This document shows, piece after piece, positions 31,814 through 47,718 of a stretch of 64,000 nt of DNA. Numbering within the stretch: the stretch's first letter is position 1; each line of letters begins with the position of its first letter. The stretch is from the NCBI RefSeq assembly GCF_000807775.2, contig NZ_CP047385.1, positions 2,046,001 to 2,110,000 of the forward strand. Reading direction: 5' to 3'. The position numbers were made by a program, and so were the translations under genes. The notes beneath the pieces are model-generated. The model ran no database searches. It was not told where the DNA came from and worked only from the letters and a program-made list of their open reading frames with translations. The stretch is from Pandoraea fibrosis (lineage in GTDB: Bacteria; Pseudomonadota; Gammaproteobacteria; Burkholderiales; Burkholderiaceae).

Positions 31814-33049
31814 CTATGCGTAGAGTCCTGCGCTGATCGCTTCGCCGCAGTCGCGCACGTGGGGAATGCTCAACTGCTTGAGCTTGCGATATAACGACGC
31901 TCGGCAGAAGCCAAGCGTGCGCGCAGCGGCAGAGATGTTCCAGCGATGCTGGGCGAGGGCTTGCAGAATGCGTTCGCGCTCACTGTCATGACGTGGCGTC
32001 GGCGCCATCGTCTCGACCGGCCGGGCAATCGATGTGGGGAGCGCTGCGTCGCTGGATTCGGCGATGCGCTGGAGCATCGACGTGTCGTCGCGTGGCGCCT
32101 GCCCGCGTGAAGCCGCAACCCGGTCTGGCGGCAAATCGTCGACACACAAAAGATTGCCGCTCATCACCGCACAGGCATAACGTAATGCTGCGCGAAGCTG
32201 ACGCAGATTCCCGGGCCACGCCTGCGTCAACAGATACGACAGGGCGTCGGGCGTCACCCGAGCGAGCGCCTGATCGGCCCGCAGTCCCGGCCATTCGTCG
32301 CACAGCATGCGGGCAATCAGTTCGCGCTTGTCGTCGCGCTCGCGCAGTGTGGGCAGCGTGAGCACGCCCACGGCGATACGGTAGTAAAGATCTTCCCGGA
32401 AGGTGCCTTGCGCCACGGCGCGTGAGAGATCCTGATGGGTCGCGCAGATCAACTGTACGTCCACCGGCACCGCATGACTCCCGCCGAGTGGCGTGACTTC
32501 ACGCTCCGAGAGCACCCGCAACAACCGCGTTTGCAGCGCATGCGGCATGTCTCCGATTTCGTCGAGGAAAAGTGTGCCGCCGTCGGCCTGCTGCAATTTC
32601 CCTTTCATGCCACCGGGCAACGCGCCGGAAAACGCTCCACGCTGATAACCGAACAATTCGCTCTCGACGAGATGCTCAGGCAGCGAGGCCGTGTTGATGG
32701 CGACAAACGCTTGCGCGCGCCGCTCGCTGTATTCATGCAATGCCCGGGCCAGAAACTCCTTGCCCGTTCCCGTCTCGCCGAGAATCAATATGGGCAGTCC
32801 GCGATCGACAAAGCGCTTGCCGCGCGCGAGAAGATCGCGCATGCGGGCGTCGGTGCCGCACAGGTCGTCGATGGCGAGATAGTCGGGGCGCATCTGACGC
32901 GCCGCAGTGGGGGCGGTCGGCACGCGTGTGATGCGCTCAGCCAGGGCTGCGATGTTGTTGAAGGCGGTATTGGCACTGGCTGCGCCGGTGGTGCTGGCGT
33001 GGCCGACAGGTCGAGCGGGGGCAGGCGCTACAGCAAGGTGAGCGGGCAT
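31814..33049 (-). CDS. Sigma-54-dependent transcriptional activator (Fis-type), without sensor domain
   Basis: Bacterial enhancer-binding protein of 411 residues. The AAA+ core has Walker A GETGTGKE, Walker B GGTLFLDEIGD and the sigma-54 contact loop GAFSGA, which differs from the usual GAFTGA by a conservative Thr to Ser change. The C-terminal Fis-like helix-turn-helix is NISAAARTLGFCRASLYRKL. Before the AAA+ core only about 75 low-complexity residues are found, with no receiver, GAF or PAS domain. The core resembles AcoR-type activators. ATG 33049 has a perfect AAGGAG site 7 bases upstream. It is divergent from a LysR gene. Its target may include the -24/-12 promoters near 44 kb, but that is inference. 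Confidence 0.92.
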   Translation of the reverse strand: MPAHLAVAPAPARPVGHASTTGAASANTAFNNIAALAERITRVPTAPTAARQMRPDYLAIDDLCGTDARMRDLLARGKRFVDRGLPILILGETGTGKEFLARALHEYSERRAQAFVAINTASLPEHLVESELFGYQRGAFSGALPGGMKGKLQQADGGTLFLDEIGDMPHALQTRLLRVLSEREVTPLGGSHAVPVDVQLICATHQDLSRAVAQGTFREDLYYRIAVGVLTLPTLRERDDKRELIARMLCDEWPGLRADQALARVTPDALSYLLTQAWPGNLRQLRAALRYACAVMSGNLLCVDDLPPDRVAASRGQAPRDDTSMLQRIAESSDAALPTSIARPVETMAPTPRHDSERERILQALAQHRWNISAAARTLGFCRASLYRKLKQLSIPHVRDCGEAISAGLYA

Positions 33050-33212
33050 GACTTGTCTCCTTCTCGTATCGGTACGAAAGGTCGCCGTCGGTGGCTTGTG
33101 GCCTGGCGTTTCCTGACGTCTCTTTATGTCGCAGCCAGCTCGGGTGGCCAACCGCCAATGCAGGATACGACTGCTCAGTCATAACATCCAATACAATATT
33201 GATGTTCTATTA

Positions 33213-33227
33213 ATACCTCTGGGGTAT
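33213..33227. promoter_or_regulatory. LysR-type T-N11-A palindrome at the start of the LysR gene
   Basis: ATACC-TCTGG-GGTAT is a perfect 5-bp inverted repeat with the T-N11-A layout of LysR sites. It lies only 3 bp before the ATG at 33231, where it would overlap the ribosome site. This suggests autoregulation, possibly with control of the divergent sigma-54 activator gene. Confidence 0.5.
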
Positions 33228-33230
33228 CAA

Positions 33231-34175
33231 ATGATCGAGCTGCGTCATTTCCAGTATTTCGTGGTGCTCGCGCAGACGCTGCATTTCGGTCGTGCGGCCC
33301 AGCAGTTGCATATTTCGCAACCACCGCTGTCGCGTCAGATTGCGCTGATGGAGGCGGAGTTGGGCGTGCTGCTGTTCGAGCGCACGCGTCGCAGTGTGCG
33401 GCTCACGCGTGCCGGCGCACGCTTTTATCAGGACGCGGTGGAAATTCTCAACTCGGTCGAACGCGCGCGGCGCAATGTCGTGGCGGCGAGCCGGGGGGAG
33501 GATGGCGCGATCACGGTCGGCTTCATGATGTCCTCCGCGTACAACATCCTGCCCGCGCTTACGCGAACCTATGCGGCGGCGTATGCGCGCGTCGACATGA
33601 AACTGGCGGAGACGCTACCCAACCTGCTGGCCGAGGCGGTGCGTGCGGGGCAAACCGACGTTGGCATCATGTACCGCCCTGAAGACCTCACCGGGCTCGA
33701 CACGGCGACGGTGTTCCGCGAGGAGATGGTGGCGGTGCTGCCGCGCACGCACGCGCTGGCGAAGGCGCGGGTACTGGACGCCTCGCAACTGGCCGAAGAG
33801 TCGTTCGTGAGCATTCCGCGCGAGATTGCGCCGCTGGTCTACGACCTGGTCGTGGACCACTGCCGCCGCGCAGGGTTCTCTCCCCACATCCGGCTGGAAA
33901 CCAACTTGCAGCAGACGATTATCAATCTGGTCGGCGAGGGGCTGGGAGTGGCGATGGTGCCCATGTCGATGAGCAGCGCGAGCGCGTCGGGGAGCGCGGT
34001 TTTCAAGCCGTTGCGCAACGCGCCTGTGGCGGAGGTGGCGCTGTTGTGGAGTCGCGACAATCACAACCCATGTGTCGCGACCTTCGTTGAGAACGCGAGA
34101 ACGGTGTGGCGCGAGATGCAGCACGCACCGGGCGCACGACTGGTGCCGGACAGACCGGACACCAGCGTGCGATGA
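33231..34175 (+). CDS. LysR-family transcriptional regulator
   Basis: Regulator of 314 residues. The N-terminal winged HTH is ELRHFQYFVVLAQTLHFGRAAQQLHISQPPLSRQIALME, close to the CbnR/CatR/BenM branch that controls aromatic and organic acid catabolism. The C-terminal periplasmic-binding-protein-like effector domain is intact (TVGFMMSSAYNILPAL...). It is divergent from the sigma-54 activator; its own targets are not evident. The open frame before ATG 33231 is ignored because the HTH starts right at this Met. Confidence 0.93.
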   Translation: MIELRHFQYFVVLAQTLHFGRAAQQLHISQPPLSRQIALMEAELGVLLFERTRRSVRLTRAGARFYQDAVEILNSVERARRNVVAASRGEDGAITVGFMMSSAYNILPALTRTYAAAYARVDMKLAETLPNLLAEAVRAGQTDVGIMYRPEDLTGLDTATVFREEMVAVLPRTHALAKARVLDASQLAEESFVSIPREIAPLVYDLVVDHCRRAGFSPHIRLETNLQQTIINLVGEGLGVAMVPMSMSSASASGSAVFKPLRNAPVAEVALLWSRDNHNPCVATFVENARTVWREMQHAPGARLVPDRPDTSVR

Positions 34176-34280: not shown

Positions 34281-35003
34281 CTAGACTCGGTCGCCCAACA
34301 CGGTGGCTCGGGTGAATGCTTCGATGTTGTCCAGCAGCGCATCGAGGCCTTCACCCGCTCGTTTCACATCGCCGGCCGCAATCGCTTCGGCGACTTGCGC
34401 ATGCAGCCGCGCCATGGTTGGCAGGTCCGCCGCTTCCTTGTAGTGGTAATACCAGAAGCGGCGTGACAGCCCGTGCATCAGGCGCATGGCACCTTCGGCG
34501 AATTCGTTTCGGGCCGCGACGAGACACAACTCGTTGAACTCACGGTCGGCACGAATGAACTCGACATCCTTGCCGCTACGGGCGGAACTCCTGAACTCCT
34601 TCGCCAGACGCGTAAAGTGTTCCCGTTGCTCCGCCGTGGCCTTCTTCGCAGCACTTCTGGCAATCAGTCGTTCGACCTCGCGTCTCGTCTCCAGCAGGCG
34701 CAACTGCTTGGAGACGTCCATCGGAGGCACCAGCAGGCCGCGCTGCGGCAATACGACAATCAAATGTTCCCGGGCCAGCCGCTGAATCGCTTCACGAATC
34801 GGCGTGCGTCCAAAGCCCGTCATCTCGCTCAACTGTAACTCCGACATTGTTGAACCCGGGGCCAGTCGCAGCGTCACTATCGCCTCTTCGATCCACTCGT
34901 ACGCCATGTCCACCATTCGGCCGCGAGGGATCGCATCCATTCGTTCATCGAGCGCTGCGGCTTCTGGTTTCCCCGTCCGTCGGGGCGCCTTCTTTGTCGC
35001 CAT
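34281..35003 (-). CDS. GntR-family regulator with FCD effector domain
   Basis: Regulator of 240 residues. The wHTH at about 30-95 contains LRLAPGSTMSELQLSEMTGFGRTPIREAIQRLAREHL. The all-helical FCD domain follows, with the metal/effector-site residues in IRADREFNELCL and a His in RLHAQVAEAI. It is divergent from the hydrolase/Fe-ADH operon, sharing a 187-bp intergenic region with a palindrome at 35153-35170. Copies of that palindrome also precede the next two transcription units, so this protein is the likely (probably repressing) regulator of the whole region. The effector is unknown. Confidence 0.92.
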   Translation of the reverse strand: MATKKAPRRTGKPEAAALDERMDAIPRGRMVDMAYEWIEEAIVTLRLAPGSTMSELQLSEMTGFGRTPIREAIQRLAREHLIVVLPQRGLLVPPMDVSKQLRLLETRREVERLIARSAAKKATAEQREHFTRLAKEFRSSARSGKDVEFIRADREFNELCLVAARNEFAEGAMRLMHGLSRRFWYYHYKEAADLPTMARLHAQVAEAIAAGDVKRAGEGLDALLDNIEAFTRATVLGDRV

Positions 35004-35120
35004 TTGGTCAATGCTCAGAGCAAATGTTAATTGTATATCACCTGCTTACAGCGATAGCGCAGACCTGTCTCGGCCCTTGCCGCATCCCGATAGTACGGGC
35101 ATTCCCGGTATCCATATCGC

Positions 35121-35170
35121 TTGTTCGGATCGACTAGTGTGCTATTATTAATCAACTAATATATTACTTG
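35121..35170 (+). promoter_or_regulatory. Promoter plus operator site 1 (CTAATA/TATTAC palindrome) before the hydrolase/Fe-ADH operon
   Basis: A -35 TTGTTC (35121-35126) and a -10 TATTAT (35143-35148) are spaced by 16 bp. Directly downstream, CAACTAATATATTACTTG (35153-35170) is an 18-bp palindrome with a single mismatched pair. Bound protein would cover the expected transcription start. The core matches sites at 37313 and 38943. Confidence 0.65.
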
Positions 35171-35190
35171 TGCTGATGCGAGTGGCGACG

Positions 35191-35952
35191 ATGGACATCA
35201 AGCGGTTAGGGAATTCCGAAGGCCTTCCGATAGTTGCCTTGCACGGCATTCAGGGAACGAACGACTCGTGGACGCCGCTTGCGACGGCGCTTGGCGATAC
35301 GTTTTTCTTCATCCTGCCCAACATGCCGGGGCGCGGCGATGCCCTTGTCCCGCTCTCGCCAACAGCTTGCAGCGCCAGCGAGTTCGCGCGCATCGCCAGC
35401 GAGGTCATCGAAGAGGAGGTCGGCCATCGGGCCTACGTTCTGGCCGGTTGGAGCATGGGGGTTTCCGTGATCTTCGAGCTTCTGCGGGATTTGGCGCACG
35501 GCGGGGCTCGGCACCCGCTACCGGTCGCCGTTGTCCTCATGTCGGGCACCGCACAGTTGAATGAGGTGTCCTGGTTCGAAGCGACCGACGAGGCTGAGCT
35601 TCTCACCGAGATCCGGCAGCGCGAGGCGCGCCTGAAGCTGAAGCAAGCGGCAGCGCCACATGTCGTGGCCTGGACCTGGCGAGCCCTGAAACCCCTCTCG
35701 CATTTGTCGAATCTGGCTCATATCAGCTTGCCCGTCCTCATCGTCCACGGCAGCGAAGACGAGGACTGTCCCATCGAACACGCACAGCGCATGCGCGAAG
35801 GAATTCGTCACGCCACATTGCACGTGATCCCCGGCGGGCGTCATTCGATCCTGACGGAGAACTTCCGCGAGGTCGGGGCAACCATGCGCGAATTCCTGGC
35901 GCCGTACTGCGGGCAGCCAAGGTCACAACTAAATCCACCGGAGAATTCATGA
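35191..35952 (+). CDS. Alpha/beta-fold hydrolase
   Basis: Serine hydrolase of about 253 residues. The nucleophile elbow is GWSMG, an HG oxyanion motif lies in IVALHGIQGTNDSW, the acid is in IVHGSEDEDCP, and the catalytic His is in PGGRHSIL near the C-terminus. There is no signal peptide. I prefer ATG 35191 (MDIKRLGNSEG); GTG 35170 or ATG 35176 would add 5-7 residues but overlap the operator. It overlaps the Fe-ADH gene by 4 bp (ATGA). It could cleave an ester or a C-C bond of the pathway substrate. Confidence 0.88.
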   Translation: MDIKRLGNSEGLPIVALHGIQGTNDSWTPLATALGDTFFFILPNMPGRGDALVPLSPTACSASEFARIASEVIEEEVGHRAYVLAGWSMGVSVIFELLRDLAHGGARHPLPVAVVLMSGTAQLNEVSWFEATDEAELLTEIRQREARLKLKQAAAPHVVAWTWRALKPLSHLSNLAHISLPVLIVHGSEDEDCPIEHAQRMREGIRHATLHVIPGGRHSILTENFREVGATMREFLAPYCGQPRSQLNPPENS

Positions 35953-37214
35953 GGATCGACGACTGCGTACACTTTTGTGCGCCTTCCCGGCTCATCATCG
36001 AGCTGGGATATCGCCACAAGCTTCCCAACCTTCTGCAAACGCTGGGCTACCGGCGCGGGCTGCTTGTGACTGATAGCTTTTTTGCGGAGAAAACCCCCTG
36101 GGTGAGCGAGTACGTGACGGCGTGCAAGCGCCTGGGCGTGCACATGGACGTCTACGCCGGTGGGCAGCCCGACCCGACAACGGAACTCTGCGATCGCGCG
36201 ACGACCGAACTGCGTCTTGCGCTGGCAGGCCGTCTGCCGGACCATATCGTCTCGCTGGGCGGCGGCAGCAACATCGACCTGGCCAAGGCGTTGTGCGTCA
36301 CCCTTTCGGAGGGTCGTCCCATTCGCGACTTTGGGAGCGGTGTGGCGAGCGACGCCCCCGTCATCGATCACATCGCCGTGCCAACCACGGCCGGCACGGG
36401 GTCGGAGCTCACGCCGGGGACGATTCTTTTTGATCCGGCCAGCGGTATCAAGACCGCGGTGATGGACAATCGGCTACGTCCAGTCGTCGCGGCGATCGAC
36501 CCCGAGCTTACCTTCACTTGCCCACCCAAGGTCACGGCCGAGTCGGGTATCGACGCCTTGACTCACGCACTCGAATCGTTCGTCACGCTGGACTCCGATC
36601 GGTTCGATCGAAACGGTTCCTTCGATCCCGGTTATAGCGGCCGTAACGGCCTGACCATGATCTTTGCGCGCGAGTCGATCCGGCTCGCCGTCGCGTATCT
36701 GCTTCGATGTTACGAAAACGGCAATGATGTGCAAGCGCGCGTTGGCATGTGCTACGCGAGCGTCTATGCCGCAATGTCCTATGGAAGCGCAGGCCTCAAT
36801 GCGGTTCATGGCATCGCATACGGCGTCGCTGCGCTGACACACCAGTCGCATGGGGCGACGAATGCGGTTGTGCTGCCGTATGCCATCGATGCACTGCGCG
36901 AATCACGTCACACCGAACTCCTGGAAGTGGCTCAAATGTTCGGCATCGAAGACGACGATGAGGTGCGGGCCGTTGGCGAGTTGCCCCGAAAATTGCGCGA
37001 ACTCGTCGGCAAGCTCGGCATCCCCACCGATCTCAATGCCTTTGGCATTCCCCAGCAATCACTCAATCATTTGCTGATCGACTCTCTGAGCGTGACTCGG
37101 TTGGCCAAAGCATTCCCGGTAGGGAATATCGAAGAAAGCTACGCGCAGATTATCGATAACGCGTGGCGCGGAGGTCTTCGAGACGAGAAGACAGAGAAAC
37201 GGACGGCAGCCTGA
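35949..37214 (+). CDS. Iron-containing alcohol dehydrogenase family protein
   Basis: Group III (Fe-dependent) dehydrogenase of 421 residues. The dinucleotide-site motif is GGGSNIDLAKALC, and VPTTAGTGSELTP is typical. The metal-site segments are SGIDALTHALESF (Asp and His) and VHGIAYGVAALTHQSHGATN (two more His, including residue 287). The His usually found four residues after the third ligand (VHGMAH in FucO) is Tyr 291 here, which may change the metal or catalysis. It is coupled by ATGA to the hydrolase gene. The substrate is unknown; relatives act on alcohols, lactaldehyde or maleylacetate. Confidence 0.9.
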   Translation: MRIDDCVHFCAPSRLIIELGYRHKLPNLLQTLGYRRGLLVTDSFFAEKTPWVSEYVTACKRLGVHMDVYAGGQPDPTTELCDRATTELRLALAGRLPDHIVSLGGGSNIDLAKALCVTLSEGRPIRDFGSGVASDAPVIDHIAVPTTAGTGSELTPGTILFDPASGIKTAVMDNRLRPVVAAIDPELTFTCPPKVTAESGIDALTHALESFVTLDSDRFDRNGSFDPGYSGRNGLTMIFARESIRLAVAYLLRCYENGNDVQARVGMCYASVYAAMSYGSAGLNAVHGIAYGVAALTHQSHGATNAVVLPYAIDALRESRHTELLEVAQMFGIEDDDEVRAVGELPRKLRELVGKLGIPTDLNAFGIPQQSLNHLLIDSLSVTRLAKAFPVGNIEESYAQIIDNAWRGGLRDEKTEKRTAA

Positions 37215-37312
37215 TCGACACGGACGCAATCGATTCGATAGATCGCTGTCGCCGCGCAAAAGACCACACTCACTACTCGGCCGGATACACCGGCCACTTT
37301 TGCGTCTCAATG

Positions 37313-37326
37313 TCTAATATGTTAGA
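37313..37326. promoter_or_regulatory. Operator site 2 (palindrome TCTAATATGTTAGA) before the MFS gene
   Basis: This 14-bp palindrome has one mismatched pair and lies 37 bp before the MFS start. It shares the core CTAAYATRTTAG with the sites at 35153-35170 and 38943-38960, so a common regulator is likely. Confidence 0.65.
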
Positions 37327-37362
37327 TGTTCATCAGTAAGATGTAACGGAGGAGACACAAGC

Positions 37363-38745
37363 ATGGATATGTCCGCAGCCGCGTCGCGGCTAGGTGTTGA
37401 CGTCGTCGCGCGTCTTGAGCGACTACCGATGACGAGCTATCAACGAACGCTTTTCTCTATCATTGCCACTGCCTGGTTCTTCGATTCCATGGACCTCGGG
37501 TTGATGACCTTTGTGCTCGGTTCGATCAAGGCGGAGTTTGGTCTGTCCGCTTCGCAGGCCGGATTGCTCGCCAGTTCCAGCTTTTTCGGCATGTTTATCG
37601 GTGCTGCCACGGCAGGTCTTCTTGCCGACAAGTTCGGACGCAAGCCGGTCTTTCAGGTCAGCATGATCTTCTGGGGCGTGGGCAGCCTGATGTGCGGTTT
37701 TGCTCACAATGTCGAGTCGCTGATGATCTACCGCGTGCTGCTCGGCTTCGGCATGGGCATGGAGTTTCCGATCGGACTGTCGATGGTTTCCGAGATCGTG
37801 CCCGCCAAGAGTCGGGGCAAGTACGTGGCGATTCTCGAGGGATTCTGGCCCATTGGTTTCATAGCGGCAGGCGCGTTTGCCTACTTCACGCTTCCGGTGA
37901 TCGGCTGGCGCGGGATCTTCATCGCGTTGGCGATCCCGGCGGTTTTCGTGTTCGTCGTCAGACGCATGGTGCCTGAGTCGCCTCGCTGGCTGGAAGACAC
38001 CGGACGCATGAAAGAAGCGGCGGACGTCATGAATCACATCGAAGCCAAGGTGCAGACGGCCTATGGCCGTAAGCTGCCCGAGCCTGTACTCGTGGCGGGC
38101 GTGAGGCATCCGCTGAGTGGCCGGAAGGCGCTCTTCGCGGAGATCTGGCGTGGCGTGTATGCGAAACGCACGGTCATGTTGTGGACGACCTGGTTCTTTG
38201 CGCTATTGGGCTATTACGGTCTTACCACGTGGCTCGGGGCCTTGCTTCAACAGGCTGGCTACGAGATCACCAAATCCGTGCTGTACACCGTGTACATCTC
38301 GCTGGCAGGTATCCCGGGCTTTCTCTTCTCTGCCTGGTTGCTTGAGAAATGGGGGCGCAAGCCGACTTGCGCCTTGATGCTGCTCGGGAGTGCGGTTGCC
38401 GCCTATCTTTACGGTCAGGCGGCCGGCGCAAAGGCGCCGATCGAGCAGTTGATCGCCGCAGGGCTGCTGATGCAGTTTTTCCTTTTCGGCATGTGGTCCG
38501 TCCTGTACGCCTACACGCCGGAACTGTACCCGACCCGGACTCGGGCGACAGGCTCGGGCTTTGCCTCGTCCATCGGGCGTGTCGGCTCCCTCGTTGGTCC
38601 GCTCGCCATTGGAGTGCTGCTCCCGGCCTGGGGACAGGCGGGGGTGTTCACGATGGGCGCACTGTCCTTCGTGATCGCCGCGCTTGCCGTACTGCTGCTG
38701 GGTGTCGAGACGAAGGGACGTTCGCTGGAGGACGTTTCGCACTGA
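37363..38745 (+). CDS. MFS metabolite:H+ symporter
   Basis: Inner-membrane transporter of 460 residues with 12 predicted helices. The MFS loop 2-3 signature is GLLADKFGRKPVF, and the sugar-porter-like PESPRWLEDTGRMKEA segment follows helix 6. The second half repeats the signature as WLLEKWGRKPTC. The architecture resembles the AAHS/NicT-type importers for aromatic and heterocyclic acids. A strong GGAGGAG site precedes ATG 37363. It probably imports the substrate or an intermediate of the adjacent catabolic genes. Confidence 0.9.
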   Translation: MDMSAAASRLGVDVVARLERLPMTSYQRTLFSIIATAWFFDSMDLGLMTFVLGSIKAEFGLSASQAGLLASSSFFGMFIGAATAGLLADKFGRKPVFQVSMIFWGVGSLMCGFAHNVESLMIYRVLLGFGMGMEFPIGLSMVSEIVPAKSRGKYVAILEGFWPIGFIAAGAFAYFTLPVIGWRGIFIALAIPAVFVFVVRRMVPESPRWLEDTGRMKEAADVMNHIEAKVQTAYGRKLPEPVLVAGVRHPLSGRKALFAEIWRGVYAKRTVMLWTTWFFALLGYYGLTTWLGALLQQAGYEITKSVLYTVYISLAGIPGFLFSAWLLEKWGRKPTCALMLLGSAVAAYLYGQAAGAKAPIEQLIAAGLLMQFFLFGMWSVLYAYTPELYPTRTRATGSGFASSIGRVGSLVGPLAIGVLLPAWGQAGVFTMGALSFVIAALAVLLLGVETKGRSLEDVSH

Positions 38746-38942
38746 CACGATGTTTGCAATCCACCCGTTGTCACCCGGCGGGGCGCGCTCCCCGCCGGAG
38801 GAATTGAGGCGTCGATCAAGCCTGCCGCCGGCAAGTGCCGGTTGACGAGCCTTCTCCGGCACCCGTGCCGATTCCATGCTTCGGCACCGCCTCCACTCCC
38901 CCCAAAACAGTGAATGCTCGCGGGTTGATTTTTTTGAGTGCT

Positions 38943-38960
38943 CAACTAACATATTAGTTG
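38943..38960. promoter_or_regulatory. Operator site 3 (CAACTAACATATTAGTTG) before the membrane hydroxylase gene
   Basis: An 18-bp palindrome with one mismatched pair, the best of the three copies. It lies 45 bp before the ATG at 39005. A -35-like TTGATT sits at 38925-38930. It matches sites 1 and 2 in the shared core. Confidence 0.7.
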
Positions 38961-39004
38961 TTTATTATTGCGGTTCGCGTCGATTCAAAGACAGGAGACA
39001 AGCC

Positions 39005-39814
39005 ATGATTACAGAGCGTCAGTTGAAGTTCAGGGAGCAATACAAGTCCGACATCAGCCCGATGTACAACGGTTTGTTGCACATTGCGGTGATGTACATC
39101 GTGGCGATTGGCGCGGTCTGGTATGCCGTCAGCCGATTGCAGAGTCCGACGTGGGAATGGTTCCTGATCGTTCCGGTCTTTCTGGCAGGCAATTTTGTCG
39201 AGTGGTTCATGCATCGGTTCGTCATGCATCGCCGCGTAGATGTCTGGGGCCTGCGCGAGATCTACAACCGGCACACGCGTCAGCATCACCAGTATTTCAC
39301 CGACCAGTTGTCGACGATCGACACGACGCGCGAGTTTCGAATCGTGTTTTTCCCGTGGCGTGTGTTGATGACGCTGGGGGTTGGCGGTGGGGTCATGGGC
39401 TATATGACCGCATGGATTTTGAACGAGAACGCCGGCTGGATGGTGTTCCTGACCATGGTCGGTCAGTATGTCGTTTATGAAACCTTCCACTACTGCTGCC
39501 ACTGTCACGAAAACTGGTTCGTGCGCAACATGCCGTTTATCAATACCATTCGGCGTCACCACACGGCGCATCACAACATGGGCATCATGATGAAATACAA
39601 CATGAATCTCACGTTTCCGATTGCCGACTGGTACATGGGAAGCAGCGATTTGCGCCGGGGTCTGATCGGCCATCTGTTCAATGGCTACAGCGAAGCGCAC
39701 ATCAAGGACGAATTGAAACCGATCATCGCCAAGTTCAGGAGCGACCATTCGCAAGTCACGCTGGATGGCCCGATTCTCACCGAGGATGAGCGCAGGGCAA
39801 TGACGGCGCTCTGA
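39005..39814 (+). CDS. Membrane di-iron hydroxylase (sterol desaturase / fatty acid hydroxylase superfamily)
   Basis: Integral membrane protein of 269 residues with about four hydrophobic segments. It has the histidine boxes that bind two irons in this superfamily: HRFVMH, HTRQHH, HCCHCH-like HYCCHCHE, and RRHHTAHH. Family members hydroxylate or desaturate alkyl chains, sterols or carotenoids using O2. ATG 39005 has a GGAG site. It has its own operator copy and probably supplies the oxygenation step for the pathway that the hydrolase and Fe-ADH complete. The substrate is unknown. Confidence 0.88.
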   Translation: MITERQLKFREQYKSDISPMYNGLLHIAVMYIVAIGAVWYAVSRLQSPTWEWFLIVPVFLAGNFVEWFMHRFVMHRRVDVWGLREIYNRHTRQHHQYFTDQLSTIDTTREFRIVFFPWRVLMTLGVGGGVMGYMTAWILNENAGWMVFLTMVGQYVVYETFHYCCHCHENWFVRNMPFINTIRRHHTAHHNMGIMMKYNMNLTFPIADWYMGSSDLRRGLIGHLFNGYSEAHIKDELKPIIAKFRSDHSQVTLDGPILTEDERRAMTAL

Positions 39815-42652: not shown

Positions 42653-43672
42653 TTACGCGAGCTTCCCGGTGTACTTTTCCAACACGGCCCACGCCTCGTC
42701 ACCGAACTTTTTGTGCCATTCGGCATAGAAGCCGGCCGCGCGAAGCTTCTCGCGGAATTGTTCGTTGTTCGGTGCATTGAACACGAGTCCCTTCTGCTTG
42801 AGTTCGGCCATGACGCCGTCGTTGAGCTTGCGCACGTCGTCGCGCTGCGCCATCGCTGCGGCGTTCACGTTGGCGGTCACGATCGCCTGCAAGTCTTTCG
42901 GCAGCTTGTCCCATTTCTGCTTGTTGGCGAGGAACCAGAAGCCGTCCCACATGTGGTTCGTCATCGACACGTACTTCTGCACTTCGTACAGCTTGGCCGT
43001 GGTCAGCAGGGCAAGGGGGTTTTCCTGCGCTTCGACGATGTGCGTTTGCAGGGCGGAATACACTTCGGCGAAATTGATCGAGGTGGGCGACGAGTCGAAG
43101 GCGCGGAACATCGAGGTCCACAGCGGGCTTGTCGGTACCCGGATCTTCAGGCCCTTGAGGTCGGCAGGCGAGTTGATCGGACGGCTGCTCGTAGTGATCT
43201 GGCGATACCCGTTCTCCCAGATCTTGTCGAACGCGAACACCGACGTCTTGGCGATCTGGCCGCGCACATGCGCACCGAGGTCACCATCCATCGCGGCCCA
43301 CACCTGACCGTAATCCTTGAACGCGAAGCCCACGCCGGAGATCTGCGCCGAGGGCACCAGCGTGCCGAGAATCAGCGGCGAGAGCGTGAAGAAGTCGATC
43401 GCGCCCGAGCGAATCTGGCTCAGCATGTCGCTGTCGGTGCCGAGCTGGTTGTTCGGATAGATCTGGAAGTCGATACGGCCCTTCGATTGCTCCGCGATTT
43501 TCTGCGCCATTTCTTTGGCGCGAACGTTCATCGGGTGGCTGATGGGGAGGTTGTTGGCGAACTTGACCGTGAATTCGGCCGCGTGGGCCTGCGTCTGATA
43601 CAACCCCGTGGCGGCGGCGGCCGATGTGGCGGCCACAACCTTGATGAAGTGGCGGCGATCCATGTTGCTCAT
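42653..43672 (-). CDS. dctP-like: TRAP transporter solute-binding protein (DctP family) with Tat-like signal
   Basis: Periplasmic substrate-binding protein of 339 residues. The N-terminus MSNMDRRHFIKVVAATSAAA carries a twin-arginine motif (RRHFIK) before a hydrophobic stretch ending AHA, suggesting export by Tat. The mature part has the DctP hallmarks QLGTDSDMLSQIRSGAIDF, LKGLKIRVPTSPLW and AEVYSALQTHIVEAQENP, with the conserved Arg that pairs with the carboxylate. The AGGAG site is 9 bp before ATG 43672. First gene of a leftward operon driven by a -24/-12 promoter at 43806-43821. Confidence 0.94.
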   Translation of the reverse strand: MSNMDRRHFIKVVAATSAAAATGLYQTQAHAAEFTVKFANNLPISHPMNVRAKEMAQKIAEQSKGRIDFQIYPNNQLGTDSDMLSQIRSGAIDFFTLSPLILGTLVPSAQISGVGFAFKDYGQVWAAMDGDLGAHVRGQIAKTSVFAFDKIWENGYRQITTSSRPINSPADLKGLKIRVPTSPLWTSMFRAFDSSPTSINFAEVYSALQTHIVEAQENPLALLTTAKLYEVQKYVSMTNHMWDGFWFLANKQKWDKLPKDLQAIVTANVNAAAMAQRDDVRKLNDGVMAELKQKGLVFNAPNNEQFREKLRAAGFYAEWHKKFGDEAWAVLEKYTGKLA

Positions 43673-43805
43673 ACTGCATGTCTCCTGATTTATAGGTTTG
43701 GTGACTGCGTCTGAAGCACGAGGCGTGCGAACGTGTTGCCCTGCAACGTCCCGGCCAACTCGGAACGCAAACGTGAGGCGGCTCGCAAGTGGCTTGGCTA
43801 TCTTA

Positions 43806-43821
43806 CGCAAGTCGAATGCCA
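43806..43821 (-). promoter_or_regulatory. Sigma-54 (-24/-12) promoter for the TRAP operon
   Basis: Read leftward, TGGCATTCGACTTGCG fits the consensus TGGCAYRNNNNTTGCW, with GG and GC exactly 10 bases apart. Transcription would start near 43795, about 120 bp before dctP. It mirrors the rightward promoter at 44291-44306 (both contain TCTGGCAT). Confidence 0.8.
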
Positions 43822-44008
43822 GATCGTGGCCTGAACGGGAAAACCCTTACGTTGTTAAGCATCAGTGAAATCCCGCGCCCGGCATCTTGCATCGCTCTCC
43901 TTCCTTTTATCTGGCGGAACCCGGCAGCGCCGTGCGCGACTGTCGCCAACCGTGTTTGGTGCATCTGCGATTGACGCGCGGTGACGCGCATCTGGCACGC
44001 CGATGGGG

Positions 44009-44088
44009 GGCGACACCTGTCGCATTTCCCGCTCGCCTTGCGACACCTGTCGCAGGCCAGTGGCGATCGTCGTGCGACAGGTGTCGCA
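44009..44088. promoter_or_regulatory. Array of three palindromic enhancer-like sites (GCGACA-NN-TGTCGC)
   Basis: Three 14-bp perfect palindromes lie at 44010-44023, 44040-44053 (both GCGACACCTGTCGC) and 44074-44087 (GCGACAGGTGTCGC). Copies 2 and 3 extend to 16 bp (TGCGACA-NN-TGTCGCA). Their spacings are 30 and 34 bp, close to three helical turns, so they would face one side of the DNA. The array sits about 190 to 280 bp upstream of both sigma-54 promoters, the usual distance for an activator that loops to RNA polymerase. The bound protein is not known. Confidence 0.85.
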
Positions 44089-44290
44089 GGGTGCCGCCCC
44101 GTGCCCGTTGTGTTGCGGCACAGCAAATTGGCCTCACCCGATCGGCATTCGAATTCACTTGATGGCGCAGTGAATGCGGCCTTACGCTTACGTCAATTGC
44201 GACAGCGCCATAAGCGCGGGCGTCGCAATCGAGACGCAATGCGATGCAAAGGCCGTTGGCGCTTCATCGGGGTTTGGATGGGCCCATGTC

Positions 44291-44306
44291 TGGCATCGAA
44301 ATTGCT
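44291..44306 (+). promoter_or_regulatory. Sigma-54 (-24/-12) promoter for the thiolase operon
   Basis: TGGCATCGAAATTGCT matches the consensus TGGCAYRNNNNTTGCW at all but one position, with GG at 44292-44293 and GC at 44304-44305. The expected start near 44317 gives a 30-base leader before the thiolase ATG at 44347. Confidence 0.85.
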
Positions 44307-44346
44307 CACCGGAGTCTGGATGACCCCAATTTTCCGGAGACACTTC

Positions 44347-45513
44347 ATGGTTGCTGCATGCCTTACCGGCTGGGCCCACTCCCAGTTCGGAAAACTCGAT
44401 AACGTCGATGCCGAAGTTCTGCTGGCCGATGTTGCTCAAGCCGCGCTCGACGACGCGGGCCTCGCGCCCGAACAGATCGATTCCATTCACGTCGGCACGT
44501 TCAATGGCGGTTTCCTGTATCAGGACTTCCCGTCGTCTCTCGTCTTCAATCGCATTCCAGGACTTCGTTTCAAACCCGCTACGCGCTACGAAAATGCCTG
44601 CGCGACGGGTTCGGCTGCCGTGCATGGCGGACTGCAATCCATCGAGGCGGGCAAGGCCACGCACGTTCTCGTGATCGGCTTCGAGAAGATGACGGAGCTG
44701 GCCACGCCGCAGGTTGGCGAAGTGTTGCTCAAATGTTCTTACGCCCGTGAAGAGGCTGACATTCCGGGCGGCTTTGCGGGCGTTTTCGGCACCATCGCGC
44801 AAGCCTATTTCGAGCGCTATGGCGATCAGTCCGACGCGCTCGCGCGCATTGCGGCGAAGAACCACCGCAATGGCTCGGTCAACCCCTATGCGCACATGCG
44901 TCGAGACTTCGGTTACGACTTCTGCCGCAACGTTTCCGAGAAGAATCCGTTCGTTGCCGGCCCGCTCAAGCGGACCGATTGCTCGATGGTGTCGGACGGC
45001 GCTGCGGCGCTGGTCATCTCGAGCGCCGACGTGGCGCGCACGATGCCCAAGGCCGTTGGCTTCCGCGCGGCGGTGCAGGTCAACGACTACCTGCCGCTCT
45101 CGCGTCGCGATCCGCTGGCGTTCGAAGGCGGCCAGCACGCGTGGCGTCAGGCATTGGGCGTCGCCGGCGTCTCGCTCAAGGATCTGTCGCTGGTCGAAAC
45201 CCATGACTGCTTCACCATCGCCGAACTCATCGAGTATGAAGCGATGGGACTCGCCAAGCCGGGCCAGGGGGCGAATGTGGTGGCCGAAGGGTTGACCGAG
45301 AAGAACGGTCTGCTGCCGGTCAATCCGTCGGGCGGCTTGAAGGCGAAGGGCCACCCGGTCGGGGCCACGGGCGTGTCGATGCACGTCATGGCTGCCATGC
45401 AACTCACGGGAACCGCCGGGCAAATGCAGATTCCCGACGCGAAACTCGCAGGCGTCTTCAATATGGGCGGCGCGGCAGTGGCGAACTACGTGAGCATTCT
45501 CGAAGCGCGTTGA
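44347..45513 (+). CDS. Thiolase-family acyltransferase (SCP-x-like)
   Basis: Thiolase-fold enzyme of 388 residues that would cleave or condense a 3-ketoacyl-CoA. The nucleophile is Cys85 in NACATGSAAVHGG. The GHP segment is KAKGHPVGATGV, and the C-terminus has FNMGGAAVANYVSI. The classical second Cys motif (CxGGG-type) is absent, and the sequence looks like the SCP-x/lipid-transfer group (thiolase II-like). ATG 44347 has a GGAG site at 7 bp and follows the sigma-54 promoter. An in-frame Met at 44320 is possible but has no ribosome site. First gene of the rightward operon. Confidence 0.9.
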   Translation: MVAACLTGWAHSQFGKLDNVDAEVLLADVAQAALDDAGLAPEQIDSIHVGTFNGGFLYQDFPSSLVFNRIPGLRFKPATRYENACATGSAAVHGGLQSIEAGKATHVLVIGFEKMTELATPQVGEVLLKCSYAREEADIPGGFAGVFGTIAQAYFERYGDQSDALARIAAKNHRNGSVNPYAHMRRDFGYDFCRNVSEKNPFVAGPLKRTDCSMVSDGAAALVISSADVARTMPKAVGFRAAVQVNDYLPLSRRDPLAFEGGQHAWRQALGVAGVSLKDLSLVETHDCFTIAELIEYEAMGLAKPGQGANVVAEGLTEKNGLLPVNPSGGLKAKGHPVGATGVSMHVMAAMQLTGTAGQMQIPDAKLAGVFNMGGAAVANYVSILEAR

Positions 45514-45607: not shown

Positions 45608-47185
45608 ATGCTCAAGAAGGTCATGAATCTCGGCCGCCTGCTGGCCGACGTTGCCCGGCGTCATCCCGACGCGCCCGGCGTGATCATCGGTGAGAAGGTC
45701 CACACATGGAGCGAGATCGACGCTCGTGTGAACGCCGCCGTCGAGGCTCTGCGCAAGCTGGGCGTAGGCCACGGCGACAAGCTGCTGGTGCATTCGCGCA
45801 ACAATCTGCCGATCTTCGAGAGTGCGTGGATCGCCTTTCGGCTGGGGGCGATCTGGGTGCCGACGAATTTCCGTATCACGGCGCCGGAAGCCGCATATCT
45901 GGGCCAATCGAGCGGCGCATGCGTGATGATTTACGACGCCGGCTTCGAGGGGCATGTCGACGCCGTACGTGCCGCGTCGCCCGCGCTGCGACATGTCATT
46001 GCGCTGGGTGCGCCGCGTGCGGGTGAGCTGCACTACGAGACGCTTGTTGCCGAACATCTCGGCGTGCCCGGCTACGAAGCCGAAGTCGAATACGAAGACC
46101 CCTTGTGGTTCTTCTACACGTCGGGCACCACCGGTCACCCCAAGGCCGGTGTGTTGTCACACGGGCAGATGGCCTTCGTGGTGACCAACCATCTGGCCGA
46201 TCTGATGCCCGGCATCACCTATCGCAGCCGGTCGATGGTGGTGGCGCCGCTCTCGCATGGCGCGGGCATTCACGCCATCGTCAATACCGCGCGGGGGGCC
46301 GCGAGCGTGTTGCTGCCGGGCGAGAAGATGGACGCGGAGCAGGTCTGGCAGGCGATCGAGCGTCATCGTGTCGACAACATGTTCACGGTGCCGACCATCG
46401 TGAAGATGCTGGTCGAGGATCCGGCTGTCGATCGGTACGACCACAGCTCGCTGCGTTTCGTGATCTACGCCGGGGCGCCGATGTATCGCGCAGATCAGAA
46501 ATACGCGCTGCAAAAGCTGGGTCGCGTGCTGGTGCAGTACTACGGACTGGGCGAGGTGACGGGCAACATCACCGTGTTGCCGCCGTGGTTGCACAGCGAG
46601 GACGACGACGCTCCCGACGCGCGCATCGGCACCTGTGGCGTGCCGCGTACCGGCATGGAGGTGGCAATTCTCGATGAACATGGCGAGCGCCAGCCGCCGT
46701 TCGCTTCCGGGGAGATCTGCGTGCGCGGGCCTGCCGTCTTCATGGGGTATCACAACAACCCTGATGCGAACGCCAAGGCCTTCAAGAACGACTGGTTCCA
46801 CACCGGCGATCTCGGGCATGTGGATGCCCAGGGCTTCCTGTACATCACGGGGCGCGCGTCGGACATGTACATCTCGGGCGGCTCGAACGTCTATCCGCGC
46901 GAGATCGAGGAAGCGTTGCTCACGCACCCGGCCGTATCGGAGTGCGCGGTGCTCGGCGTGCCCGACCCCAAGTGGGGCGAGAGCGGGCTCGCGGTGGTGG
47001 TCGCCCGGGAAGGCATGGCCGCTCAGGCCGATGAACTGCTCGGACATCTCGAAGCGCGTATCGCCCGCTATAAGTGGCCGCGTCGCTTCGTATTCTGGAA
47101 TGCCATGCCCAAGTCGGGCTACGGCAAGATCGTGAAGAAGCAAATCAAGACGATGCTCGAAGAGCAAGGAGACTATCGACTATGA
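45608..47185 (+). CDS. AMP-forming acyl-CoA ligase
   Basis: ANL-superfamily enzyme of 525 residues that activates a carboxylic acid with ATP and CoA. The P-loop is YTSGTTGHPKAG at about residue 170, the A5 motif is YYGLGEVTGN, the A7/A8 region is FHTGDLGHVDAQGFLYITGRASDMYISGGSNVYP, and the catalytic Lys is in SGYGKIVKK near the C-terminus. A GAGGAG site precedes ATG 45608. It lies 94 bp after the thiolase gene and overlaps the next gene by 4 bp. It probably activates the acid brought in by the TRAP transporter. Confidence 0.92.
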   Translation: MLKKVMNLGRLLADVARRHPDAPGVIIGEKVHTWSEIDARVNAAVEALRKLGVGHGDKLLVHSRNNLPIFESAWIAFRLGAIWVPTNFRITAPEAAYLGQSSGACVMIYDAGFEGHVDAVRAASPALRHVIALGAPRAGELHYETLVAEHLGVPGYEAEVEYEDPLWFFYTSGTTGHPKAGVLSHGQMAFVVTNHLADLMPGITYRSRSMVVAPLSHGAGIHAIVNTARGAASVLLPGEKMDAEQVWQAIERHRVDNMFTVPTIVKMLVEDPAVDRYDHSSLRFVIYAGAPMYRADQKYALQKLGRVLVQYYGLGEVTGNITVLPPWLHSEDDDAPDARIGTCGVPRTGMEVAILDEHGERQPPFASGEICVRGPAVFMGYHNNPDANAKAFKNDWFHTGDLGHVDAQGFLYITGRASDMYISGGSNVYPREIEEALLTHPAVSECAVLGVPDPKWGESGLAVVVAREGMAAQADELLGHLEARIARYKWPRRFVFWNAMPKSGYGKIVKKQIKTMLEEQGDYRL

Positions 47186-47718
47186 AACCTGCGCTTTCAC
47201 GGATCTATCGGCATGCAGGCGCCCCCACGTTACCCCGTGTGGAAGACTGCGTGTTGAACGGGCAGCACGAACTGCGCGTGACGATCCGGTCTGGTGCGAA
47301 TCTCGGCGAAGCCCTGCGCGCGGCGTTATCCCGCTATGCGTATGGCGGCGGCGTCGGCCGTTTCTGCGCGGGCACCGCGCGAGGTCTGCGGTATCACATG
47401 ATCGAGAACACCGCAGACACGGAGCGTCCCTTTGGCTATGGGGCGCCGGTCGACGAAACCCGGGAAGTGGATCTGATCGGCGGCGCGATCACGGTCGGCC
47501 GAACCGCCGACGGCGCCACGCTTCTGCATTGCCATGCGGGGTTTTCCGACCCGTCCGGCGAATTGCACGGCGGACATCTGATTCTCGATCACACCTGGGC
47601 CGGCGACGAGCCCGTGGTGATCCGCCTGTGTTTGTTCGAGCACGGCGGATACGTGACCGCAGATGACGAGGAAACGCGTTTTCACCTGCTCCATCCCGTG
47701 GCTGGAGGTCTCTCATGA
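47182..47718 (+). CDS. DUF296/PPC-domain protein 1
   Basis: Protein of 178 residues with the PPC/DUF296 fold. The conserved segment is LHCHAGFSDPSGELHGGHLI, in which His residues and GGHL form the presumed metal-site pocket. In plants the domain is fused to AT-hooks, but stand-alone bacterial forms have no agreed function. It overlaps both neighbours by ATGA, so it is translationally coupled to the CoA ligase and to the second DUF296 gene. The start ATG 47182 is fixed by this overlap. Confidence 0.85.
   Translation: MKPALSRIYRHAGAPTLPRVEDCVLNGQHELRVTIRSGANLGEALRAALSRYAYGGGVGRFCAGTARGLRYHMIENTADTERPFGYGAPVDETREVDLIGGAITVGRTADGATLLHCHAGFSDPSGELHGGHLILDHTWAGDEPVVIRLCLFEHGGYVTADDEETRFHLLHPVAGGLS

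What the first reader, a model, noticed from the sequence alone, without database searches (positions are those of the whole stretch)
43806..44306. Two opposed sigma-54 promoters around a central array of three perfect palindromes
Rightward TGGCATCGAAATTGCT (44291) and leftward TGGCATTCGACTTGCG (43821) both fit the -24/-12 consensus. They face away from three copies of GCGACA-NN-TGTCGC at 44010, 44040 and 44074. The array lies about 190 to 280 bp from each promoter and is close to the exact midpoint (about 44056) of the two. Enhancer sites shared by two divergent sigma-54 operons in such a symmetric layout are unusual. They imply one activator controlling both TRAP uptake and CoA-linked catabolism.
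Basis: partly seen in the sequence, partly recalled or inferred. Interest (0 to 1): 0.85.

Follow-up and report, generated by a model that had tools for sequence, protein, structure and literature searches.

The report
Shared enhancer for two divergent operons
Between an uptake operon and a breakdown operon of a Pandoraea-like bacterium lies a conserved cluster of near-identical binding sites that most likely lets one activator protein, encoded about 11 kb away beside a probable sensor gene, switch both operons on together.

Summary
Both -24/-12 (sigma-54) elements are present in 30 of 30 Pandoraea loci; three palindromes in 26 of 30, with near-constant site spacing although the spacers diverge. 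The three window sites are the only ones at <=1 mismatch in the 5.59-Mb genome. The exact symmetry is not conserved.

The likely activator is in the window: a 411-aa sigma-54 activator without sensor domain (31814-33049, -). Activator and thiolase orthologues are both in 30 of 32 Pandoraea genomes and both missing in the other two. In 12 of 24 other genomes with the array, the best homologue of this activator lies within 10.5 kb of it. Its gene is divergent from a LysR gene, with an ATAC-N7-GTAT box between them in 29 of 30 loci.

Best model: LysR senses the substrate and controls a sensorless activator, which binds the array and fires both promoters. Binding, starts and induction are untested. 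Divergent operons sharing one sigma-54 activator are published; the LysR/sensorless-activator cassette with its invariant GAFSGA loop is the less familiar part.

The parts
43806..43821 (-). -24/-12 element of the leftward (TRAP operon) promoter, TGGCATTCGACTTGCG
   Evidence: present in 30 of 30 Pandoraea loci; 13 of 16 bases invariant in 26 loci
44291..44306 (+). -24/-12 element of the rightward (thiolase operon) promoter, TGGCATCGAAATTGCT
   Evidence: 30 of 30 loci, beginning 49-57 bp before the thiolase ATG; 15 of 16 bases invariant in 26 loci
44009..44024 (.). activator site 1, GGCGACACCTGTCGCA
   Evidence: 11 of 16 bases invariant
44039..44054 (.). activator site 2, TGCGACACCTGTCGCA, 30 bp centre-to-centre from site 1
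   Evidence: spacing 30 in 23 and 31 in 3 of 26 three-site loci
44073..44088 (.). activator site 3, TGCGACAGGTGTCGCA, 34 bp from site 2
   Evidence: spacing 33 or 34 in 26 of 26 three-site loci
44347..45513 (+). thiolase-domain protein (PRK07516), first gene of the rightward operon
   Evidence: NCBIfam NF005704, 658.8 bits against cut-off 412; Pfam
45608..47185 (+). acyl-CoA synthetase (PRK07470); start taken at an internal ATG of the 45518 ORF, by eye
   Evidence: NCBIfam NF005676, 893.9 bits against cut-off 774
47182..47718 (+). PCC-domain-like protein
   Evidence: Pfam PF03479, 24.0 bits, just under its cut-off of 25; a homologue lies in all 7 loci L186-L192
42653..43672 (-). TRAP solute-binding protein DctP; start chosen by eye
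   Evidence: Pfam/NCBIfam; 65% identical to PDB 4oan over 316 aligned residues
40775..42652 (-). fused TRAP permease DctQM
   Evidence: Pfam PF04290 + PF06808
39918..40673 (-). short-chain dehydrogenase
   Evidence: Pfam PF00106/PF13561; stays beside DctQM in the Pandoraea stretches that reach it
31814..33049 (-). sigma-54 activator without sensor domain (411 aa): AAA+ from residue 64, GAFSGA loop, Fis-type HTH; proposed binder of the array
33231..34175 (+). LysR-type regulator divergent from the activator gene
   Evidence: Pfam (longer ORF); start re-assigned; orthologue at 70% identity or more in 30 Pandoraea genomes
33213..33227 (.). ATACCTCTGGGGTAT, LysR-type box ATAC-N7-GTAT just before the LysR start
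   Evidence: the only such site in the window; strict in 29 of 30 Pandoraea loci, one mismatch in the other
44180..44198 (.). conserved block CCTTACGCTTACGTCAATT of unknown role between array and rightward promoter
   Evidence: only copy in the genome at <=3 mismatches
44113..44126 (.). conserved TTGC-N6-GCAA palindrome, unknown role
44151..44164 (.). conserved GAATTCACTTGATG, weak IHF-like candidate
   Evidence: about 3 mismatches from the IHF consensus as I recall it
43836..43850 (.). conserved block CGGGAAAACCCTTAC behind the leftward promoter, unknown role
43735..43747 (.). conserved GTTGCCCTGCAAC in the DctP leader, unknown role

Best explanation
The region is a bidirectional sigma-54 control region. 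Three 16-bp sites form one enhancer for two divergent -24/-12 promoters: leftward for dctP-dctQM-SDR (uptake), rightward for thiolase-acyl-CoA synthetase-PCC (catabolism). The cognate activator is the 411-aa AAA+/Fis-HTH protein at 31814-33049. Shown by sequence and comparison: the sites, the promoter elements, their conservation, linkage of activator and array, absence of a recognised sensor domain, intact Walker motifs, and the conserved LysR-type box between activator and LysR genes. Inferred: the activator binds the array as an oligomer and contacts each promoter by DNA looping; because it has no sensor, it is controlled by its own supply, which the LysR protein (33231-34175) sets in response to the substrate or an intermediate.
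For: Both promoters in 30 of 30 Pandoraea loci; at least one site at <=2 mismatches in 30 of 30 and three in 26 of 30, with diverged spacers. Activator and thiolase orthologues are both in 30 of 32 genomes and both missing in the same two, G017 and G026. In 9 of 12 Pandoraea stretches that cover the junction, the activator-side LysR directly adjoins the SDR-DctQM-DctP-array-thiolase block. Of 24 distinct non-Pandoraea array genomes followed, 12 have the best match to the activator within 10.5 kb of the array and 2 more have the second or third best within 1.5 kb. Six other Burkholderiaceae genomes (7 loci, L186-L192) carry LysR + sensorless activator with module genes; 5 of the 7 loci have an exact site, against 0 of 9 LysR-only loci at <=2 mismatches. 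A paralogous LysR/activator pair has its own palindrome (0-2 mismatches) between divergent sigma-54 elements in 3 of 3 loci read. Distances from array to rightward promoter vary from 130 to 288 bp in near whole helical turns (9 distance clusters, r=0.75 at 10.5 bp, p about 0.006). One RpoN gene. LysR box in 29 of 30 loci. Of the 8 strong sigma-54 activators in this genome, this one's HTH is most like those of 8 betaproteobacterial activators beside the array elsewhere (mean identity 0.43 against 0.22-0.38).
Against: No binding, transcript or mutant data. For the leftward promoter the helical phasing fails by cluster (8 clusters, p about 0.41); unclustered distances fit 11-11.25 bp better than 10.5. 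All loci are related by descent. The two genomes lacking both genes are weak controls: G017 is a reduced 1.2-Mb genome and G026 an 89%-complete draft. Among L186-L192, L186 keeps both promoters but no site at <=2 mismatches, L190 has no site, L188 has its site before the PCC gene and L191 before a second thiolase gene, so only L187, L189 and L192 have a site between divergent dctP and thiolase genes. Five non-Pandoraea array genomes show no activator on the array contig in the (capped) list, and four gammaproteobacterial genomes none near it. In 7 of 7 gammaproteobacterial loci read, the two palindromes flank a CTTG element, and 4 of the 7 have no sigma-54-like element (<=3 mismatches) within 600 bp, so the motif alone does not name its protein. 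The strict LysR box is missing near LysR in the paralogous pairs (0 of 4: L172-L174, L200) and in L191. The HTH means leave out two array-linked activators (L166, L167) whose HTH looks different.
Confidence: 0.77

Rival explanations
1. The array is a true sigma-54 enhancer, but a different activator binds it (one of the other seven in the genome, or one acting together with 31814-33049).
For: The genome has 8 strong sigma-54 activator matches (plus 4 weak ones); in the non-Pandoraea genomes fetched the activators beside the array are long forms (666-984 aa open frames), not the sensorless form.
Against: Linkage and joint absence point to the sensorless one; its HTH is closest to the array-linked ones; no other <=1-mismatch site exists in this genome.
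Confidence: 0.12
2. The palindromes are operators of a repressor and the sigma-54 promoters are activated through other sites, such as the conserved blocks at 44113-44126 or 44180-44198.
For: In Gammaproteobacteria the same double palindrome (33 bp apart) flanks a -35-like CTTG element, a repressor-like layout; several other blocks are about as conserved as the array.
Against: The array lies 111-288 bp from the -12 elements, far for simple occlusion; a simple consensus scan found no sigma-70-like promoter in 43660-44360; linkage to an activator in 14 of 24 non-Pandoraea genomes followed.
Confidence: 0.06
3. The activator is regulated by something other than LysR (an anti-activator, or a ligand bound by the short variable N-terminus); LysR merely neighbours it and controls itself.
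For: The LysR box lies 3 bp before the LysR start, a usual place for autoregulation; paralogous pairs lack the strict box; sensorless PspF is held by an anti-activator (recalled; of PMC3791423 only the start of the abstract was seen, in the listing).
Against: The pair is together in 30 of 30 Pandoraea loci, in 6 other genomes of the family and in 1 of another family with the same box; the activator-LysR intergenic region is nearly invariant.
Confidence: 0.3

Closest known systems
Desulfovibrio vulgaris orp divergent operons with activator DVU2106, sigma-54 and IHF (PMC3897727: abstract and Introduction read)
   Different: IHF sites are shown there and only weakly suggested here; different genes. 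Whether that activator has a sensor domain or a LysR partner was not examined.
DVUA0100 type III secretion operons of D. vulgaris (PMC4641369: passages read)
   Different: There the activator gene is inside one of the two operons; here it is a separate unit paired with LysR.
Long sigma-54 activators (about 670-700 aa) near 2-oxoacid dehydrogenase-type operons in Hydrogenophaga and Cognatazoarcus (AcoR-like; that name is recalled, no family match tested it)
   Same: Same palindrome; in 8 of 10 fetched array loci of other genera (L159-L168) a sigma-54-like element (<=2 mismatches) lies within 200 bp and faces away; shared HTH residues such as WNI and CRAT-YR in most; in Cognatazoarcus a divergent sigma-54 pair round the sites.
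   Different: The two long forms checked have about 340 residues before the AAA+ domain, the window protein 63; their loop, where the pattern matched (8 of 10), is GAFTGA, GAFTGG or GSFTGG, not GAFSGA. Operon content differs.
Klebsiella nifH-nifJ divergent sigma-54 promoters with shared NifA sites (recalled, not read)
   Same: Shared enhancer between divergent sigma-54 promoters.
   Different: NifA has a sensor domain; nitrogen fixation genes (recalled).
PspF (sensorless sigma-54 activator; T86S variant in PMC7229158: passages read)
   Same: No N-terminal sensor domain (recalled for PspF); the window protein naturally has the Ser that T86S introduces into the loop.
   Different: PspF is negatively regulated by another protein; here a LysR partner is proposed. 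[quoted passage not shown] GAFSGA is natural and invariant here.

Membership tests
sigma-54 (-24/-12) promoter | GG-N10-GC with TGGC and TTGC context | tested here: met
sigma-54 (-24/-12) promoter | rpoN in the genome | tested here: met
   one PF04552 match, E=7.5e-67
sigma-54 (-24/-12) promoter | transcription start about 12 bp past the GC, RpoN-dependent | not testable with these tools
   needs 5'-end mapping in wild type and rpoN deletion
sigma-54 enhancer-binding protein | AAA+ domain with Walker A, Walker B and a GAFTGA-type loop | tested here: met
   GETGTGKE, GGTLFLDEI, GAFSGA; PF00158 213.6 bits. Ser for Thr in the loop; PMC4641369 (passage) lists GAFSGA among variants that would keep activity
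sigma-54 enhancer-binding protein | C-terminal Fis-type HTH | tested here: met
   PF02954 47.8 bits
sigma-54 enhancer-binding protein | N-terminal sensor/receiver domain (usual, not obligatory) | tested here: not met
   AAA+ match starts at residue 64 of 411, and at 26 of 390 in L189; no N-terminal Pfam family at E<=1e-5
AcoR (acetoin operon activator) | N-terminal sensor region and acetoin dehydrogenase genes nearby (features recalled) | tested here: not met
   no N-terminal domain; no 2-oxoacid dehydrogenase gene among the 20 window proteins scanned
Shared-enhancer divergent sigma-54 pair (orp type) | one activator-site cluster between two opposed sigma-54 promoters | tested here: met
   (sequence level only)
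Shared-enhancer divergent sigma-54 pair (orp type) | both operons lose expression without the activator | not testable with these tools
   needs mutants or reporters
Shared-enhancer divergent sigma-54 pair (orp type) | IHF sites between enhancer and promoters | tested here: inconclusive
   one conserved block (44151-44164), about 3 mismatches from the recalled consensus
LysR-controlled divergent gene pair | divergent genes with an ATAC-N7-GTAT / T-N11-A box between them (consensus recalled) | tested here: met
   33213-33227; strict in 29 of 30 Pandoraea loci
AlsR (LysR of acetoin synthesis) | score over the NCBIfam AlsR cut-off | tested here: not met
   NF045775 253 bits against cut-off 430

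The most novel reading that the evidence does not exclude
A distinct regulatory cassette: a LysR sensor gene divergent from a sensor-stripped sigma-54 activator with an invariant GAFSGA loop (41 of 41 LysR-linked rows), which turns a ligand signal into co-firing of two divergent sigma-54 promoters through one central enhancer. It has been reused (a paralogous pair in Pandoraea) and the LysR-activator-box unit occurs outside the family (G495). The ligand decision is moved out of the activator into a partner gene, and a weakened sigma-54 contact may offset an activator that is always 'on' once made.
Probability: 0.45. Interest if true: 0.65.

Novelty: new variant of a known kind. Interest (0 to 1): 0.5.

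Why it matters
It gives a fully specified candidate sigma-54 circuit (sensor, activator, enhancer, two promoters) whose parts are conserved and separable, so it can be moved into a laboratory strain. It raises a testable question: how a sigma-54 activator without a sensor is kept off, and whether the natural GAFSGA loop lowers its strength as the T86S change does in PspF. It also proposes the regulation of an uncharacterised TRAP/thiolase pathway, with a ligand hint from a solved relative.

Tried and rejected
Symmetry as a functional feature: rejected, because the offset between array centre and promoter midpoint runs from -57.5 to +14 bp over 30 loci.

Motif alone as proof of the binding protein: rejected because of the gammaproteobacterial arrays and hits in unrelated phyla (Solirubrobacter, Streptomyces, Prevotellaceae and others). 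Of the 76 stretches, 23 were followed (with 3 loci, 26 in all, 24 distinct genomes), 13 are Pandoraea, and 40 were not followed; some of those 40 are Proteobacteria (mostly Rheinheimera and other Gammaproteobacteria). The match list was capped, so 'none listed' is not proof of absence.

A wider regulon in this genome: none found at <=1 mismatch; (<=3 mismatches) gave 436 hits against 385 for the control, mostly noise. The block CCTTACGCTTACGTCAATT looked to me like a MerR/LiuR-type box (recalled); no second copy at <=3 mismatches exists in the genome, so this was left open. Sigma-70 promoters: none by simple consensus. AcoR papers for a published motif: the listings gave nothing that I followed up. 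Papers with all of TRAP transporter, thiolase, sigma-54 and enhancer binding protein: none. A LysR/sensorless-activator cascade was not seen in the listings; only titles and abstract starts were seen for most, and the library lacks most subscription journals. PMC6449761: only reference-list passages seen, not used.

Four divergent loci (L027-L030) were left out of the alignment but are in the counts. One search did not turn minus-strand loci and is replaced. One search was an empty placeholder script.

Full report
What is there. The window is part of a 5.59-Mb single-contig genome (G000:C1:2046001-2110000). Named relatives carrying the same operons (e.g. L119 Pandoraea communis, thiolase 99%, DctP 98%) place it in Pandoraea. 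Between dctP (-) and a thiolase gene (+) lie two opposed -24/-12 elements and three copies of TGCGACA-NN-TGTCGCA (the first with one outer mismatch), as reported. The leftward genes are DctP, fused DctQM and an SDR. The rightward genes are a thiolase-domain protein (NF005704), an acyl-CoA synthetase (NF005676) and a PCC-domain-like protein.

More than chance. As single motifs, neither the promoter pattern nor the palindrome is rarer than shuffled or reversed controls give. Clustering and conservation decide it. The double-palindrome pattern is found in 22 of 299 genomes of the family (19 Pandoraea, 3 of genus g3), with no hit for the reversed control. Thirty of 32 Pandoraea genomes have an orthologous thiolase (the tool's 31st match, G026, is only E=2e-4). 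In all 30 loci both -24/-12 elements are present, the right one beginning 49-57 bp before the ATG. Twenty-six have three sites at <=2 mismatches, one has two, and three (the most divergent, thiolase 78-81%) have one. Spacings are 30/34 (12 loci), 30/33 (11), 31/34 (3) and 22 (1). In the alignment of 26 loci the promoter elements and sites stand out (13/16, 15/16, 11/16, 10/16 and 10/16 invariant) against 0/14 and 0/18 in the spacers and 172/651 overall.

Geometry. The array-to-promoter distance changes by indels. For the right promoter, eight of nine distance clusters (130 to 288 bp) keep nearly one helical phase (r=0.75 at 10.5 bp, p about 0.006; best period 10.5 on the unclustered values). 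For the left promoter (112 to 214 bp) the clusters show no such signal (p about 0.41), and the unclustered values fit 11-11.25 bp better. The right-hand result is what looping from one face of the DNA would leave, but the loci share ancestry, so the p-value is only a guide. The midpoint symmetry is not kept.

The activator. The genome has 12 matches to the sigma-54 activator domain, 8 of them strong, and one rpoN. One strong match is in the window at 31814-33049 (-), 411 aa from its best start: AAA+ from residue 64, Fis-type HTH, no N-terminal domain. Its orthologues occur in 30 of 32 Pandoraea genomes; G017 has no match and G026 only a 58% paralogue. These are the same two genomes that lack the thiolase, though one is a reduced genome and the other an incomplete draft. 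In 9 of the 12 Pandoraea stretches that cover the junction (L088, L097, L100, L101, L102, L170, L171, L176, L177) LysR directly adjoins the SDR; L169 has about 1.7 kb between them, and L119 and L175 carry extra genes there, as the window does at 34281-39814 (some stretches may be of the same species).

Test outside the genus. A scan of genome contigs (84,980 species genomes by the tool's description) gave 76 stretches with the double palindrome, many in unrelated phyla. I followed 26 genomes (23 stretches and 3; 24 distinct, since L104 and L054 lie in the same assemblies as L031 and L033). In 12 of 24 the genome's best match to the window activator lies within 10.5 kb of the array. In two more (Derxia, Methylopila) the third and second best lie within 1.5 kb. 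In one MAG a partial activator is on the array contig, 5.5 kb away. Five (four MAGs and one draft) show none on the array contig, and four Gammaproteobacteria none near it, in a capped list. Of ten such loci fetched (L159-L168), eight have a sigma-54-like element (<=2 mismatches) within 200 bp of the double palindrome; L161 has one only beside a separate single palindrome and L162 none. In Hydrogenophaga the nearby operon encodes E1-beta and E2-type 2-oxoacid dehydrogenase parts, a lipoyl-ligase-like protein, a GMC oxidoreductase and a 703-aa activator. In Cognatazoarcus an E1 gene faces a MetA-pathway-type gene followed by a PQQ dehydrogenase gene, and two opposed sigma-54 elements flank the sites. 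In 7 of 7 gammaproteobacterial loci read the two palindromes flank a CTTG element, which suggests another protein and another logic. So the palindrome alone does not identify its protein; linkage does.

The LysR partner. Matches to the LysR gene at E<=1e-75 occur in 51 of 299 family genomes (the tool scored at most seven candidates a genome). I read 17 stretches. Eight hold a sensorless activator next to LysR (L186-L192, L200). Of L186-L192, five have an exact palindrome: L189 and L192 between opposed sigma-54 elements in front of DctP and thiolase; L187 between thiolase and DctP and again before PCC; L188 before PCC only; L191 before a second thiolase gene. L186 has the opposed elements without a site at <=2 mismatches, L190 has none, and the contig of L200 ends about 0.8 kb after the activator. 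The nine stretches with LysR but no activator have no palindrome at <=2 mismatches (0 of 9). A paralogous LysR/activator pair in Pandoraea has a palindrome (0 to 2 mismatches) between opposed sigma-54 elements in 3 of 3 loci read; one side encodes an aldo/keto reductase. In an order-wide sample (399 genomes, E<=1e-95) only this genome and one of another family matched the activator; the latter has the LysR-activator pair with the box but no array or module genes within the 19.9 kb read. Between activator and LysR lies ATAC-N7-GTAT, which I recall as the consensus of the CatM/BenM/CbnR group: strict in 29 of 30 Pandoraea loci, in 6 of 7 of L186-L192 and in L211; not strict near LysR in the paralogous pairs (0 of 4) or the LysR-only loci (0 of 9). 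The activator-LysR intergenic region is almost invariant in Pandoraea.

The loop. All 41 LysR-linked activator rows (30 orthologues L129-L158, paralogues L172-L174, L186-L192 and L200) read GAFSGA. Of the ten long array-linked activators, eight read GAFTGA, GAFTGG or GSFTGG and two did not match the search pattern. GAFSGA is a known natural variant, listed among those that would keep activity in D. vulgaris (PMC4641369, passages read). In PspF the same change, T86S, is described as reducing affinity for the closed complex (PMC7229158, passages read).

How it most likely works. Shown by sequence: the promoter elements, sites, conservation, linkage and domain content. Inferred: LysR detects the substrate and sets the amount of activator; the activator, having no sensor of its own, binds the sites, oligomerises, and loops to either promoter, so uptake and catabolism rise together. 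The substrate is open. DctP is 65% identical over 316 residues to PDB 4oan, which I recall as modelled with 2-acetolactate; a review passage confirms only that 2-acetolactate was found as a TRAP ligand (PMC5812351, one passage). The LysR protein's only NCBIfam match at E<=1e-60 is AlsR, well below its cut-off. A small branched hydroxy-keto acid is a fair first guess.

Comparison with what is known. Divergent operons co-controlled by sigma-54 and one activator are published for the D. vulgaris orp genes (PMC3897727, abstract and Introduction read), and a shared motif is predicted for the DVUA0100 operons (PMC4641369, passages). The layout is therefore a member of a known kind. What I did not see in my searches is a LysR gene paired with a sensorless sigma-54 activator. 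I rate the whole a new variant of a known kind.

Limits. No wet data. Counts treat related genomes as separate. Starts of the activator, LysR, DctP and synthetase genes were re-assigned by eye.

Noticed in passing
window 34281-39814: GntR/FCD regulator, alpha/beta hydrolase, iron ADH, MFS transporter and a FA_hydroxylase-like protein sit between LysR and the SDR here; most of them also in L175, and in L119 as far as it reaches. 9 of 12 Pandoraea stretches covering the junction lack them there.
   Followed up: partly
window 43735-43747, 43836-43850, 44113-44126, 44180-44198: Four further conserved blocks in the divergent region, two of them inverted repeats (GTTGC-N3-GCAAC, TTGC-N6-GCAA), with no assigned role; a second regulator may act here.
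   Followed up: partly
window 33050-33230: The activator-LysR intergenic region is nearly invariant across 26 Pandoraea loci although the activator proteins of the others are only 66-87% identical to the window's.
   Followed up: partly
L057, L059, L092, L111, L112, L117, L121: Gammaproteobacteria carry two copies of the same palindrome 33 bp apart round a CTTG element; looks like operators of an unrelated regulator.
   Followed up: partly
L164 4265-4654 (Cognatazoarcus): An independent divergent sigma-54 pair round three copies of the palindrome, between an E1 dehydrogenase gene and a MetA-pathway-type/PQQ-dehydrogenase gene pair.
   Followed up: partly
L189 10240, L192 10306, L187 9057: In other genera the PCC-domain gene has a sigma-54-like element of its own, in L187 with a palindrome, so it may be a functional part of the module.
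   Followed up: no
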